Part shown: in pieces, positions 3,568 through 19,342 of the stretch | Layout: every line of letters begins with the position of its first letter | Position numbering within the stretch: position 1 is the first letter of the stretch | Assembly (NCBI GenBank): GCA_002070755.1 | Contig: MWDY01000284.1 | Coordinates: 1 to 26,343 of the forward strand | DNA: 26,343 nt | Source of the DNA: Spirochaetes bacterium ADurb.Bin110 | GTDB taxonomy: Bacteria; Spirochaetota; Spirochaetia; Treponematales; Rectinemataceae | Direction: 5' to 3' | The notes under the pieces: generated by a model | Seen by the model: only the letters and a program-made list of their open reading frames with translations | Told to the model about the DNA's origin: nothing | The model's database searches: none | Position numbers and translations under genes: made by a program

Positions 3568-4676
3568 CTGTCGACCTCTTTCAACATCCCCATAGACAGT
3601 GCCATCTCGGCATTGAGAATCGAAGCGCCTGCCGCTCCTCTCTCGGTATTATGACCTAGCGAGATGAATTTAAAGTCTAAAATAGGACAAGGACGCAATC
3701 TCCCCAGACTAATGCACATGCCATCCTCTTCCTCGGCATCTAGACGAGGCTGAGGCCTGTCATCGGCTTCTATAAGCCGTAAGAACTGTTTAGGGGCACT
3801 TGGCAGATCATAGGCCAGAGTCTTTGGCTTGTAGTTTTGGAAAGCTTCTACGACTCTTTCTAGGCTCGTCTTTGATTTCAATTTTGCGGAGATAGATAGA
3901 GTGTGGCCATCGATCACTGGTACACGAGTACAGGTCGCCGAAACCGTAAAGGAGGCGGGCACAATAGAAATCACATTTTTCTCTTTGACTAAGCGTCCCA
4001 ATATCTTATTGGACTCCGATTCTACCTTAGATTCCTCATTTCGTATGAAAGGAATAACATTCCCTTCGATATCGAGCGCAGATACACCCGGATAACCAGC
4101 CCCACTGATTGCCTGCATGCTTGTAACCATAACCGCATCAAGGCCGAATTGTTCTTCGAGAATTGCCAAAGGCACTGCGAGCATTATGGTTGTGCAGTTC
4201 GGATTAGTAACGATAGTGCCATGCCATCCTCGCTTAGCCTTCTGCATTTCGATCAATTCAAGGTGTTCGGGATTTAGCTCTGGAATAAGGAGAGGAATGT
4301 CTTCGTCCATCCTGAAGGCACTTGCATTCGAAAACACATAGGCACCAGCCTCTGCAAACAATGGCTCGATCTCGTGTGCGGGACCTGCATCGAGGGCTGA
4401 AAAAACAATGGGAGAAAAGGCAAGCTCTGGAGAACATGGAACGACAATTGCATCTGCATGCCCTGCGTATGAAAGCCCCGAAAGACGCCATCGACAGGCT
4501 TCTGCATATTTCTTGCCTGCCGATCGATCGCTTGCAGCCAAAAACTTTGGATAGAACCATGGATGGTTGGCAATTCTGCGGAGAAATCGCTGCCCTACCA
4601 CTCCTGTTGCACCAAGTATTGTGACTGGAATCTTTTTTGAAGGAGAAAATTGCAATTGGGATTGATTATTGTTCAT
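3564..4676 (-). CDS. asd: Aspartate-semialdehyde dehydrogenase, archaeal/fungal type
   Basis: Asd reduces aspartyl phosphate to aspartate semialdehyde with NADPH. Seen: nucleotide-binding GATGVVGQ (22-29), SNASAFRMD, the catalytic cysteine in TNPNCTT (Cys161), MQAISGAGYPG with Gln188, RVPVIDGH with catalytic His258, DRPQPRLD, and a late GAAG. TNPNCTT, SNASxFRMD and DRPQPR mark the archaeal/fungal subfamily rather than the E. coli one. It is the first gene of the operon, and its GGAGG, 4 nt before the ATG, lies in a hairpin downstream of the lysine riboswitch. The start is set by that site. The first ~15 residues (NNNQSQLQFSPSKK) are a polar extension before the Rossmann strand. Confidence 0.95.
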   Translation of the reverse strand: MNNNQSQLQFSPSKKIPVTILGATGVVGQRFLRRIANHPWFYPKFLAASDRSAGKKYAEACRWRLSGLSYAGHADAIVVPCSPELAFSPIVFSALDAGPAHEIEPLFAEAGAYVFSNASAFRMDEDIPLLIPELNPEHLELIEMQKAKRGWHGTIVTNPNCTTIMLAVPLAILEEQFGLDAVMVTSMQAISGAGYPGVSALDIEGNVIPFIRNEESKVESESNKILGRLVKEKNVISIVPASFTVSATCTRVPVIDGHTLSISAKLKSKTSLERVVEAFQNYKPKTLAYDLPSAPKQFLRLIEADDRPQPRLDAEEEDGMCISLGRLRPCPILDFKFISLGHNTERGAAGASILNAEMALSMGMLKEVDR

Positions 4677-4800: not shown

Positions 4801-4803
4801 CAA

Positions 4804-4990
4804 ACGTCAGGCGCTCCGCGGAACGATTGATTTCCGCGACAGCCGTCGGGTATTAGCCCGGACGTCCAAGAACAGCCCTGAGAGAAAGGCCCTGTCCCTT
4901 CGGCGATCCTCCCCTTTCTGGCGCGTTCACAGGCTCTCTCGGCCTCCCGTCCGTACTCATGGGGATCGCTCCTCCATCGGTGAAGTGACC
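4804..4990 (-). promoter_or_regulatory. Lysine riboswitch (L-box) aptamer
   Basis: Read on the minus strand, this leader has the L-box pieces in order: AGGAGCGATCC with ATGAGTA shortly after; GGATCGCCGAAG, whose GGATCGC pairs with GCGATCC to close P2; a P3 built from ACAG..CTGT arms; the P4 hairpin CGGG-CTAATA-CCCG; GGCTGTC; a P5 hairpin GCGGAA..TTCCGC; then GGAG. The order GGCTGTC-P5-GGAG is the same as in the Bacillus subtilis lysC leader as I remember it. P1 is the weakest part; I see only GTCA near 4986-4989 with TGAC near 4805-4808. It stands directly upstream of the asd-lysC-dapB-dapA-dapD operon. Bound lysine should lower operon expression. Confidence 0.9.
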
Positions 4991-17155: not shown

Positions 17156-18400
17156 CTAGAATAGAAAAGGCAATATTTTATCCGGATTTTTGCCAAAACA
17201 AGTAACCTCGTCTATATCCTTAATGAATTGCCCCTGGACAATCGCGAATAGGGTGCGCTCGATGCCAAGCCCTCCACCGCAAACCTGTGGAAAAAATCCC
17301 TGGCCTTGCGAATCTCTCATGTGAGCAATGCTCAAAAATGGGCCATAGCCATCGAGCGCGGCCATATTTTCGAGATTCCCATGTCGATCGAAGCGCGGTG
17401 GCTCCCTCAGAACGGCATTATCCAGAAGGCGAGCAACGATCGCTTCGTATACCCATTCTCGCAAGCCGCCAGAGAGGATTTCATAAGCATGCCCAAGGCT
17501 CCCATCTCTATAGAGGGGAGCTGCGCATAAGTCATAATTGAAGACCTGCCTTGGAGAAATTTCTTTCTTCGAAGGCCTTCTCCCATCTCGAGATAGATAG
17601 GGATACACCAGATCGTAGTTCTCTCGTAAAAGCCCTAGGACCCAGAAAAATTGTGTCTTGGCTTTCTGCCCAAACTGCTCTTCTAGGCTGCATCCACTCT
17701 GTACCTCGATTTCATCGCTATAGAATCTTGGAAATGGCTTCGATGGAACAGTGAGCTTGACTCCAAGTGCTCCCAAACTCTCTGCAGCCAGCACTAGAAT
17801 TCTTTTTGTACTATAGATGATCAAATCCTCGAAAAAATCGAGCGCTCGATCTAGTTCTTTAGATAAGACCTCAGTCGTCTCTTTTGGCCTATCGAAATAG
17901 TCGTCCTCGTTAAGCTTGTGTGCTCGCTTGAATTCGATATCCATTTGAGAAAAATCGATGAGGTATTTGTGCCTTGAGGTGGACGATGGCAACTCGAGAC
18001 GGATATTAGGCGAGTCTACGTATATTCCTTCTATATATGGATTTAGACAAGCAACCATCTTGGAATAGATCATAGAATGTGTAGTCCTATAGGGCGTACC
18101 TTGATAGAGAATTACAGGGACATGCTCGACATCCTGGCATAGAGGGTCCGTAACGGGCGACAGGGATACTCTATCGATATTGAGAATTCCTTTCGAGACC
18201 AAAAATTCCTGAAGTCCTAGAACAAGAGCAGTCCTAATCTTAAGGGCATGGGCAAGTTGCTCACCCCGCCACTTCCGCATATAGGCATCGGATAAGAATT
18301 CGCTGAATGAGAGGCCTTTATCGCAAAGAGAAGTTTGAAAGCTTCTCAATATGTCACCAATCGAAGTACTGGCAGAATCTACAGAAGCAAAAGATTTCAT
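17156..18400 (-). CDS. Archaeal-type asparagine synthetase (AsnRS-like core without anticodon-binding domain)
   Basis: A class II aminoacyl-tRNA-synthetase catalytic core of the Asp/Asn group: LSPVTDPL (80-87), TTHSMIYSKM (106-115), motif 2 SPNIRLE (130-136) with SRHKYLIDFSQMDIEF (142-157), SGGLREWVYE (310-319), motif 3 GGGLGIERTL (375-384). The OB-fold anticodon-binding domain of AspRS/AsnRS is missing: only ~50 residues precede the core. This pattern, especially SPxTDPL, THSM and SPNIRLE, is that of AS-AR, the archaeal asparagine synthetase that amidates aspartate with ammonia via aspartyl-AMP. The Asn-rich leader upstream supports this. At 414 residues it is longer than AS-AR (about 295), with an insertion around 215-290. 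The start is uncertain; the ATG at 18400 has only a weak GGGA 7 nt upstream. Confidence 0.8.
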   Translation of the reverse strand: MKSFASVDSASTSIGDILRSFQTSLCDKGLSFSEFLSDAYMRKWRGEQLAHALKIRTALVLGLQEFLVSKGILNIDRVSLSPVTDPLCQDVEHVPVILYQGTPYRTTHSMIYSKMVACLNPYIEGIYVDSPNIRLELPSSTSRHKYLIDFSQMDIEFKRAHKLNEDDYFDRPKETTEVLSKELDRALDFFEDLIIYSTKRILVLAAESLGALGVKLTVPSKPFPRFYSDEIEVQSGCSLEEQFGQKAKTQFFWVLGLLRENYDLVYPYLSRDGRRPSKKEISPRQVFNYDLCAAPLYRDGSLGHAYEILSGGLREWVYEAIVARLLDNAVLREPPRFDRHGNLENMAALDGYGPFLSIAHMRDSQGQGFFPQVCGGGLGIERTLFAIVQGQFIKDIDEVTCFGKNPDKILPFLF

Positions 18401-18524
18401 TGTTTTTATCCCAGTAGAGAGATTCATCGAGAGCGCCAGAATCGCAAGAACGACGTTCAATGCGGTATTCTGGTTTAATACCCGAAATCCCATTACCACC
18501 GGGGAAACAGAAACTCTCCGTCAT
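18354..18524 (-). CDS. 56-codon ORF with a strong ribosome-binding site, overlapping the asparagine synthetase start
   Basis: GGAGG stands 8 nt before an ATG at 18524, the best ribosome-binding site of this transcript. The frame reads MTESFCFPGGNGISGIKPEY, then a charged and Cys-rich tail, and stops at 18354, about 45 nt inside the synthetase gene in another frame. It starts after the attenuator terminator. Options: a small coupled ORF that delivers ribosomes to the synthetase start, a true N-terminus joined through a frameshift (real or a sequence error), or chance. No family is recognised. Confidence 0.45.
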   Translation of the reverse strand: MTESFCFPGGNGISGIKPEYRIERRSCDSGALDESLYWDKNNEIFCFCRFCQYFDW

Positions 18525-18570
18525 CCCCTGCACCTCCAGTTTCGGAAAAACTAGCGCAATATGCAGCGCT

Positions 18571-18603
18571 AAAAAAAGCCGGCCCCGAAAACGGGACCGG
18601 CTT
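18571..18603 (-). terminator. Intrinsic terminator of the asparagine attenuator
   Basis: On the minus strand AAGCCGGTCCCG-TTTT-CGGGGCCGGCTT forms a 12-bp stem (one G-U) with a four-base loop, running into seven T. It is a textbook Rho-independent terminator. It stands after the Asn leader peptide and before the synthetase gene; no other minus-strand gene could use it, because bioY just beyond is on the plus strand. On the plus strand only CAGTTTT follows, so the minus direction is favoured. Confidence 0.93.
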
Positions 18604-18625
18604 CAGTTTTCGCGCTTCTATGCGC

Positions 18626-18712
18626 CTATATATTCGGCTCCGGCCCCGCTCCAAGTATGCGATTATTATTATTGAGGGAGTTGCCATTATTGCCGAATAC
18701 TGCTCGCGCCAT
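18626..18712 (-). CDS. Asparagine-rich attenuator leader peptide, 28 residues
   Basis: The frame reads MARAVFGNNGNSLNNNN, then RILGAGPEPNI and TAG. Eight of 28 codons are Asn, seven of them within codons 8-17, including a run of four AAT. Segment 1 (TATTCGGC, 18692-18699, codons 5-7) can pair with GCCGAATA (18631-18638, last codons). GGGGCCGG (18640-18647) can instead pair with CCGGTCCC (18593-18600), the 5' arm of the terminator. These are mutually exclusive. This is the plan of his/trp/leu attenuation, here for Asn. A GGAG lies 12 nt before the ATG, farther than usual. Confidence 0.85.
   Translation of the reverse strand: MARAVFGNNGNSLNNNNRILGAGPEPNI
18631..18699 (-). promoter_or_regulatory. 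Attenuator switching segments (1:2 pairing and antiterminator strand)
   Basis: Segment 1 (18692-18699) and 2 (18631-18638) are perfect 8-bp complements. The adjacent AGCGGGGCCGG repeats the terminator 3' arm (CGGGGCCGG occurs twice) and can take its 5' arm in an 11-bp antiterminator. A ribosome stalled at Asn codons 8-9 would cover segment 1 and free the antiterminator strand; a ribosome reaching the TAG would cover segment 2 and let the terminator form. A small GCGC-ATAGAA-GCGC hairpin (18612-18625) lies between. Confidence 0.75.
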
Positions 18713-18718
18713 GAATAT

Positions 18719-18747
18719 CTTTTACTCCGATTGCATAAATATGTCAA
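18719..18747 (-). promoter_or_regulatory. Candidate promoter of the asparagine attenuator transcript
   Basis: TTGACA (18742-18747), 17-nt spacer, TAAAAG (18719-18724). Start would fall at about 18712, on the leader ATG itself, giving a leaderless peptide. An alternative, TTGGTC (18759-18764)-17-TATTTA (18736-18741), would start near 18729 and keep the GGAG in the RNA. I cannot decide between them. Confidence 0.5.
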
Positions 18748-18756
18748 GAAGTCTAC

Positions 18757-18786
18757 TTGACCAAGGCCTTGAATTTAGGTCATAGT
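18757..18786 (+). promoter_or_regulatory. bioY promoter with a BirA-like dyad
   Basis: TTGACC (18757-18762), 18-nt spacer, CATAGT (18781-18786). Start would be near 18793, directly on the bioY ATG. The dyad TGACC-N15-GGTCA (18758-18782) overlaps both boxes; BirA operators have ACC-N14-16-GGT geometry, though their outer arms (TTGTAAACC type) are not matched. A CAAGGCCTTG palindrome sits inside. It is a plausible biotin-responsive operator at low confidence. Confidence 0.4.
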
Positions 18787-18793
18787 CCGCCCT

Positions 18794-19342
18794 ATGGAAG
18801 GAATTAGCGCAAAACTCACCCAAGCCATCATGGCATGTCTTTTTGCAGCCCTGATTTCTGTTGGAGCATACGCTGCATTTCCAATCCCTGGAACACCCGT
18901 GCCGATTGTGCTTCAGAATATGTTTATAATGCTGGCGGGATTCATCCTGGGACCTTGGTGGGGCCTTGTGTCGGTGATCTTCTATTTGATATTGGGGTCG
19001 GTAGGCTTGCCGGTATTCTCTGGAGGAACCGGAGGCCTTGCTAAATTTGCTGGACCTACGGGCGGTTACCTTATCGGTTACATACCTGGCGTCATTGTCT
19101 TTGGCCTTATATCAAAACTAGGCAAAGGCAAATGGGTTTTCAATATCTTGGCGGGAATTGCCGGAATGATGATTGTTTACGCTCTAGGTATAATCTGGCT
19201 GAAATCAGTGTTGGAGATTGGCTGGGGAAAAGCAATCGCTACTGGACTCATTCCCTTTCTCCCTGGCGATATTGTAAAGATCATTCTTGCCTCGGTTTTG
19301 ACTCCACCAATTCTCAAGGCTATGAGCCATATCGATCAATAG
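18794..19342 (+). CDS. bioY: Biotin transporter substrate-binding component BioY
   Basis: BioY is the S-component that captures biotin for an energy-coupling-factor transporter in the inner membrane. Seen: 182 residues, about six membrane segments, and the family run ISVGAYAAFPIPGTPVPIVL with the PGTPVPIVLQ core, then GPWWGLVSVIFYLILGSVGLPVF and GPTGGYLIGY. No ribosome-binding site precedes the ATG and a candidate promoter would start transcription on it, so leaderless translation is possible. ecfA follows by 4 nt. Confidence 0.95.
   Translation: MEGISAKLTQAIMACLFAALISVGAYAAFPIPGTPVPIVLQNMFIMLAGFILGPWWGLVSVIFYLILGSVGLPVFSGGTGGLAKFAGPTGGYLIGYIPGVIVFGLISKLGKGKWVFNILAGIAGMMIVYALGIIWLKSVLEIGWGKAIATGLIPFLPGDIVKIILASVLTPPILKAMSHIDQ

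What the first reader, a model, noticed from the sequence alone, without database searches (positions are those of the whole stretch)
18354..18712. Ribosome-mediated asparagine attenuator in front of an archaeal-type asparagine synthetase
All parts of a classical attenuator are visible in one transcript: a 28-codon leader with 8 Asn codons; an 8-bp segment 1:2 pairing; an antiterminator strand that copies the terminator 3' arm (CGGGGCCGG twice); a 12-bp terminator with seven T; and a downstream gene whose product should make Asn. Asn codons 8-9 start right after segment 1, where a stalled ribosome would need to sit. Attenuation peptides are well known for His, Trp, Thr, Leu/Ile/Val and Phe in proteobacteria; in Firmicutes Asn genes use T-boxes. 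I know of no described Asn attenuator of this kind, nor one in a spirochaete; that novelty statement is from memory.
Basis: partly seen in the sequence, partly recalled or inferred. Interest (0 to 1): 0.95.

Follow-up and report, generated by a model that had tools for sequence, protein, structure and literature searches.

The report
Asparagine-sensing leader-peptide attenuator in spirochaetes
In front of a predicted asparagine-making gene, in what is probably a Rectinema-related spirochaete, lies a 28-codon reading frame with eight asparagine codons followed by a predicted transcription stop signal; the same arrangement occurs at 19 related genes in three bacterial phyla and likely lets the cell switch the gene on when asparagine runs short.

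Summary
On the minus strand: promoter-like boxes, a 28-codon leader with eight Asn codons (18712-18626), an antiterminator strand (18650-18640), an intrinsic terminator (18602-18571), then an asparagine-synthetase-A-like gene, whose start I place at ATG 18400, not 18354.

The strongest support is comparative. In one clade of this enzyme, all 20 loci with readable upstream DNA (window included; 15 Spirochaetota, 3 Acidobacteriota, 2 Gemmatimonadota) have an Asn-rich leader before a terminator hairpin, although stems and peptide are largely rebuilt. None of 76 relatives outside the clade has it, nor 27 AsnB and AsnRS upstream regions. In a folding model, antiterminator formation drops once the ribosome passes the Asn run in the Rectinema group and Acidobacteriota; elsewhere the model is unclear.

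New points: the -10 box ends 6-12 nt before the leader ATG in 16 of 19 leaders, so the message is probably leaderless; nine Rectinema-group loci carry a second conserved RNA structure before the gene, role unknown.

Best reading: ribosome-mediated transcription attenuation with asparagine specificity. Searches of an open-access library showed no such attenuator. Nothing here is experimental.

The parts
18742..18747 (-). -35 box TTGACA of the leader promoter
   Evidence: best promoter score in the 60 nt upstream reached by 1.3% of 300 shuffles
18719..18724 (-). -10 box TAAAAG, 17 nt after the -35 box and ending 6 nt before the leader ATG, so the predicted transcription start is the A of the ATG (leaderless)
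   Evidence: start site inferred, not measured
18626..18712 (-). 28-codon leader ORF MARAVFGNNGNSLNNNNRILGAGPEPNI*
   Evidence: Asn-rich leaders at 19 other loci
18692..18700 (-). segment 1, GTATTCGGC (codons 5-7)
   Evidence: MFE
18662..18691 (-). Asn run, codons 8-17 (7 of the 8 Asn codons)
   Evidence: AAT/AAC swaps at four of six shared Asn codon columns in 8 leaders
18640..18650 (-). antiterminator strand AGCGGGGCCGG, starting 11 nt after the last Asn codon of the run
18630..18638 (-). segment 2, GCCGAATAT, pairs with segment 1
   Evidence: MFE
18571..18602 (-). intrinsic terminator, 11-12 bp stem, TTTT loop, U tract; stem-loop -23.0 kcal/mol
18398..18540 (-). second conserved RNA element between terminator and gene (hairpin P0, long-range P1, hairpins P2 and P3); function unresolved
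   Evidence: 35 consensus pairs, 14 with a change on both sides in at least one of 9 sequences
18354..18524 (-). second short ORF (56 codons here; 15-17 in most relatives), Shine-Dalgarno GGAGG at 18537-18533, PGGNG motif
17156..18400 (-). asparagine-synthetase-A-like gene, 414 aa from ATG 18400

Best explanation
The leader is likely a ribosome-mediated transcription attenuator that senses charged Asn-tRNA and so asparagine supply: a 28-codon leader with eight Asn codons sits between promoter-like boxes and a predicted intrinsic terminator ahead of a predicted asparagine synthetase gene. Predicted steps: RNA polymerase starts at or beside the leader ATG and ribosomes load on the leaderless message. 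If Asn-tRNA is scarce, a ribosome would stall at codons 8-17; it would keep segment 1 from pairing, its front edge would stop just short of the antiterminator strand at 18650-18640, that strand would capture the terminator's 5' arm, and the gene would be transcribed. If Asn-tRNA is plentiful, the ribosome would run on to the stop codon and cover the antiterminator strand, so the terminator would form at 18602-18571. With no ribosome, the 1:2 hairpin would form first and favour termination. Shown by sequence and calls: the ORF, the complementary segments, the terminator-like hairpin, the promoter-like boxes, and the recurrence of Asn-rich leader plus hairpin at 20 loci. Inferred: the start site, translation of the leader, termination, the stall, the enzyme's activity.
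For: Anatomy. Recurrence: 20 of 20 readable loci of the clade against 0 of 76 rows outside it; on the protein tree of 95 labelled rows (19 attenuated; L186 came later) the label changes once, shuffled mean 17.6. L186 was fetched after the tree, in a survey of the phylum of G015, and had the Asn-rich leader and hairpin. Specificity: none of 16 AsnB and 11 AsnRS upstream regions has the arrangement. Asn kept while codons change: AAT/AAC swaps in four of six shared Asn columns over 8 leaders, with one Asn-to-Asp change. Competing pairing: antiterminator duplex p = 0.012 in the window; Fisher combined 2.5e-7 over 19 leaders, 2.5e-5 over 11 representatives, rows not independent. In Acidobacteriota a different stem takes the antiterminator place, with a GC to AU exchange on both sides between L045 and L054 (read by eye). 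Geometry: the antiterminator strand begins 7-14 nt after the last Asn codon of the run in 16 of 20; modelled antiterminator probability in the window is 0.81-0.83 up to A-site codon 18 and 0.38-0.50 after it. Before arm 3 is made, the antiterminator strand is freer with a stall at the first Asn codon than without ribosome in 17 of 20, and than at the stop codon in 18 of 20 (masked bases count as not free). AsnRS is over its cut-off in 12 of 15 genomes with attenuated genes, so free Asn is expected to be needed to charge the tRNA.
Against: No transcript, ribosome or enzyme data. The antiterminator duplex does not reach p = 0.1 against shuffles in 11 of 19 leaders (L002, L003, L134, L007, L008, L009, L011, L018, L012, L054, L067). 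Pair counts inside Rectinema do not exceed shuffles for antiterminator:3 (329 of 500 as high on cells paired) and do so only modestly for 1:2 (10 of 500 on cells paired, 131 of 500 on pairs with double changes). In one search, pairing of terminator arm 3 is higher with a ribosome at the first Asn codon than without ribosome in only 11 of 19, and than at the stop codon in 12 of 19; L012, L045 and L054 show no difference, L008, L009, L011 and L067 the reverse at the stop codon. In one search the probability partly recovers as the ribosome nears the stop codon (0.58-0.72 in L003, 0.83 in L012, 0.72 in L054). The model assumes a 15-nt footprint each way and equilibrium folding; any ribosome at codons 1-17 gives the same result in the window, so codon specificity comes only from where the Asn codons lie. 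In L143, L002, L003 and L134 the no-ribosome MFE already shows the antiterminator. L013 and L067 have only 3 Asn (binomial p about 0.08). L186's U tract fails my strict scan.
Confidence: 0.88

Rival explanations
1. The terminator and the second structured element form a ligand- or protein-sensing switch (riboswitch or binding site), and the Asn-rich ORF is only incidental.
For: A second RNA element lies between terminator and gene in nine Rectinema-group loci, with 14 predicted pairs changed on both sides; in 30 family genomes the only strong hits of its covariance model are at this gene, though eight of those sequences built the model.
Against: The Asn-rich leader recurs at all 20 readable loci, while nine of them (L008, L009, L011, L012, L013, L018, L045, L054, L067) give no credible hit of the second element at this gene (L186 not searched); Asn codons persist through synonymous swaps; Rfam finds no riboswitch here at gathering threshold and none with a credible score at relaxed threshold.
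Confidence: 0.05
2. The leader acts mainly on translation or mRNA stability of the synthetase gene, not on termination.
For: The second ORF has a good Shine-Dalgarno sequence, and in the window it overlaps the start of the gene.
Against: The terminator begins 18-26 nt after the leader stop in the 19 leaders scanned, and the antiterminator strand is complementary to its 5' arm; modelled access of the gene's Shine-Dalgarno sequence has no consistent direction over 9 sequences.
Confidence: 0.05
3. Chance: an Asn-rich ORF in AT-rich intergenic DNA beside an ordinary terminator.
For: AAT and AAC codons are common in AT-rich DNA; short ORFs with 3 Asn in 7-9 codons, but no terminator, also occur upstream of L026, L040, L088 and L097.
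Against: 20 of 20 against 0 of 76, one change on the tree; also found in GC-rich leaders of Acidobacteriota and Gemmatimonadota; 0 of 27 at AsnB and AsnRS genes.
Confidence: 0.01

Closest known systems
Ribosome-mediated amino-acid attenuators (his, trp, thr, leu, ilv, phe leaders; list recalled)
   Same: Leader ORF with a run of codons for the end product, competing pairings, terminator before the gene.
   Different: Asparagine as the sensed amino acid; Spirochaetota, Acidobacteriota and Gemmatimonadota; antiterminator strand beside, not inside, segment 2 in the window; no Rfam leader family matches (best leader hit Thr_leader, 17.6 bits against a gathering score of 55).
Leaderless leader peptides of Streptomyces lividans (PMC8079986, passages seen) and leaderless cysteine attenuators of mycobacteria (Canestrari 2020, seen only as a reference)
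   Same: Transcription start at the leader start codon (predicted here); leader enriched in codons for the amino acid.
   Different: Those listed for S. lividans are Leu, Trp, Ala, Ile, Met and Thr leaders; 'asparag' and 'asn' occur 0 times in that main text.
Archaeal asparagine synthetase A (PDB 3p8t, 3reu)
   Same: Class II synthetase core with the stretches SP-TDP, THSMI, SPNIRLE and SGG-REW aligned; target-normalised TM-score 0.78 to 3reu.
   Different: 414 against about 294 residues; 24% identity to 3reu; NCBIfam NF005054 score 123 against cut-off 309; AspRS and AsnRS chains match the model with similar E-values.

Membership tests
Ribosome-mediated transcription attenuator | Short ORF with clustered codons for one amino acid, downstream of a promoter | tested here: met
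   for the window; Asn-rich ORF at 20 loci; promoter by sequence only
Ribosome-mediated transcription attenuator | Intrinsic terminator between leader and gene | tested here: met
   by sequence in 19 leaders; L186 only with a relaxed U tract
Ribosome-mediated transcription attenuator | Antiterminator that competes with the terminator | tested here: met
   window p = 0.012; p over 0.1 in 11 of 19 leaders
Ribosome-mediated transcription attenuator | 1:2 hairpin that frees the terminator when no ribosome stalls | tested here: inconclusive
   in the window MFE; pair counts modest; not in the no-ribosome MFE of L012, L045 and L054
Ribosome-mediated transcription attenuator | Downstream gene makes the sensed amino acid | tested here: inconclusive
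   fold and motifs fit; AsnB over cut-off in 4 of 15 family genomes with the gene and 11 of 15 without, p = 0.027; activity not assayed
Ribosome-mediated transcription attenuator | Termination relieved by starvation for the amino acid | not testable with these tools
   needs Term-seq or reporter
T-box | Rfam T-box model match | tested here: not met
   none at gathering score in the whole window, none at E up to 5 in 18360-18810
Archaeal asparagine synthetase A (NF005054 equivalog) | Score over the curated cut-off | tested here: not met
   123 against 309 bits; related by sequence and fold, not filed as a member

The most novel reading that the evidence does not exclude
An asparagine-sensing attenuator, translated from a leaderless message, has stayed with one lineage of asparagine synthetase genes through three phyla while its RNA stems and peptide were rebuilt, so gene and sensor behave as one self-regulating cassette; in Rectinema it is followed by a second, new RNA switch with its own small ORF, giving two-step control.
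Probability: 0.4. Interest if true: 0.82.

Novelty: new variant of a known kind. Interest (0 to 1): 0.72.

Why it matters
It would add asparagine to the amino acids read by leader-peptide attenuation and bring the mechanism to phyla where it is little known: a genome-wide terminator survey says that almost none of its predicted attenuators in Acidobacteria have associated functions, and its main text does not contain 'spiroch' (PMC2965389, passages). It also gives a functional hook, Asn control, for a poorly named synthetase family, and its parts can be tested directly in a reporter.

Tried and rejected
T-box or riboswitch at this site: no Rfam family. Same attenuator at other Asn genes: none at 16 AsnB regions (the places over cut-off, one region each) or at 11 of the 13 AsnRS places over cut-off; L163 has a terminator 635 nt from the end of its stretch and an ORF with 3 Asn far from it. 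Extra copies of the second element in 30 family genomes: eight strong hits (all sequences that built the model) and a weak one at L007 (25.5 bits, not in the model), all at this gene; G717 (22.3 bits) lies inside a P-type-ATPase-like ORF and is taken as chance; six further rows have E over 0.4. Direction of control by the second element: no consistent answer. Viral contigs: 37 pattern matches, no relative. L019 and L047 have a terminator near an ORF: in L019 the ORF is the tail of a longer frame, in L047 it has at most 2 Asn in 9 codons.

Limits of the sample: one search kept 80 of 158 relatives and one search listed 120 of 1050 proteins. Not scanned: L010, L056/L144, L064, L065/L146 and L071 (gene start or upstream DNA missing), and L101 and L103-L131 (weak partial matches). 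Counted once, as repeats of earlier loci by place or leader: L081-L083, L102, L132, L133, L135-L142, L145, L147, L148. The 76 outside rows include identical or near-identical ones (L080/L090; L028, L031, L084 and L085) and paralogues from one genome. Leader starts in L012, L054, L067 and L186 are uncertain.

Full report
What is there. On the minus strand the order is: TTGACA (18747-18742), 17 nt, TAAAAG (18724-18719), 6 nt, leader ATG 18712. The 28-codon leader MARAVFGNNGNSLNNNNRILGAGPEPNI ends at 18626. Segment 1 (18700-18692) pairs with segment 2 (18638-18630); between them lie the Asn run (codons 8-17) and the antiterminator strand AGCGGGGCCGG (18650-18640). The terminator is 18602-18571. 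Folding gives z = -4.46. I place the gene start at ATG 18400: 8 homologues in the alignment share the MKSF stretch, 4 of them begin there, and three close ones are annotated from a further upstream ATG.

The enzyme. No Pfam match at E 0.001 for the window's protein, although many homologues carry PF00152. NCBIfam's best match is asparagine synthetase A at 123 bits, under its cut-off of 309. Solved relatives by sequence are archaeal asparagine synthetase A and archaeal AspRS. A predicted model (mean pLDDT 83.8) matches archaeal asparagine synthetase A with Asp and ATP at target-normalised TM-score 0.78; AspRS and AsnRS chains match with similar E-values, so the fold alone does not settle the reaction. 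In the family of G001, AsnB is over cut-off in 4 of 15 genomes with the gene and 11 of 15 without it (Fisher p = 0.027); the genomes are related and some may be incomplete. AsnRS is over cut-off in 12 of 15 genomes that carry attenuated genes.

Comparison. Relatives came from 80 loci (capped from 158) and from searches with the protein alignment: 21 of 392 genomes of the phylum of G001, 36 of 297 of the phylum of G013 (mostly weak partial matches), 15 of 30 of the family of G001, 4 of 93 of the class of G013, 1 of 99 and 2 of 395 of the order and phylum of G015, 16 of 291 of the order of G011 (thresholds differ). I scanned up to 600 nt upstream for an ORF ending shortly before a terminator. 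Attenuated: window, L001-L009, L011, L013, L018, L134, L143 (15, Spirochaetota; the window by similarity only), L012, L045, L054 (Acidobacteriota), L067 and, later, L186 (Gemmatimonadota, from the search of L067's phylum). All 20 readable members of the clade have it; the other 76 rows have none. On the protein tree (quick method) the label changes once (support 84; shuffled mean 17.6), so one origin or loss is enough. L186 was found after that tree; its U tract is weak. L018 has two Asn-containing leaders with two terminators in a row.

Mechanism tests. Antiterminator duplexes beat shuffles in the window (p = 0.012) and combine to 2.5e-7 over 19 leaders, but 11 of 19 do not reach p = 0.1 alone. 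Within the Rectinema alignment pair counts are mostly uninformative because the stems hardly vary; one pair of antiterminator:3 and two pairs of 1:2 change on both sides. The better evidence is replacement of stems between groups. Pairing of arm 3 is higher with a ribosome at the first Asn codon than without ribosome in 11 of 19 and than at the stop codon in 12 of 19. Modelled along the leader, the antiterminator probability falls within one codon of the last Asn of the run in the window, L001-L006, L134, L143, L012, L045 and L054, with partial recovery near the stop codon in several; in L007-L009, L011, L013, L018, L067 and L186 there is no such clean edge. The gap from last Asn codon to antiterminator strand is 7-14 nt in 16 of 20. 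Availability of the antiterminator strand before arm 3 is made is higher at the first Asn codon than without ribosome in 17 of 20 and than at the stop codon in 18 of 20.

Leaderless start. In 16 of 19 leaders scored (all but L012, L054 and L067; L186 not scored) the best promoter has its -10 box ending 6-12 nt before the leader ATG. 'GGAG' in three leaders and 'GAGG' in L011 lie upstream of the -10 box and would not be transcribed. This is inference from sequence.

Second element. Nine loci of the Rectinema group share a structure between terminator and gene: 35 consensus pairs, 14 with a change on both sides. It holds a short ORF with a PGGNG, PSGNG or PGGNE motif. A covariance model finds it once per genome at high score in eight of 30 family genomes, all of which contributed to the model, plus a weak hit at the same place in L007, which did not. 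Its role is open.

Literature. Ten searches were made. Six join asparagine or asnA with attenuation or attenuator, two concern leader peptides or attenuation in general (42, 47), two the enzyme (43, 51). No title or abstract start listed describes an asparagine attenuator; most listed papers were not opened. I saw passages of PMC8079986, PMC13236596 and PMC2965389, and the abstract of PMC1262725, whose main text has no 'asparag', 'asn' or 'aspart'. Subscription papers and preprints are not covered.

Verdict. Most likely a ribosome-mediated attenuator specific for asparagine, not found described in the searched library; the mechanism class is known, while specificity, hosts and the combination with a probable leaderless start are new.

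Noticed in passing
window 18398-18540 (-): Conserved RNA structure with a short ORF (SD GGAGG, PGGNG motif) between attenuator and gene, in nine Rectinema-group loci; possible new regulatory RNA.
   Followed up: partly
L018:3605-3691 and 3773-3940 (+): Two Asn-containing leader ORFs, each followed by a terminator, in tandem before the synthetase gene.
   Followed up: partly
window 18747-18725 (-); also L007-L009 just upstream of the -35 box: AT-rich palindrome-like GCATAATTATGC (CATATTTATG in the window) at the promoter, a possible regulator site (seen by eye).
   Followed up: no
window 4801-4984 (-): Lysine riboswitch (RF00168, 75.2 bits) upstream of an aspartate-semialdehyde dehydrogenase gene and, further on, a dapA gene, so another aspartate-family pathway here looks RNA-controlled.
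   Followed up: no
window 18794-19342 (+): BioY-family gene divergent from the attenuated gene, followed by an ORF with a P-loop-like GRNGAGKS stretch (not searched).
   Followed up: no
30 genomes of the family of G001: This synthetase and AsnB tend to exclude each other (AsnB over cut-off in 4 of 15 with the gene, 11 of 15 without).
   Followed up: partly
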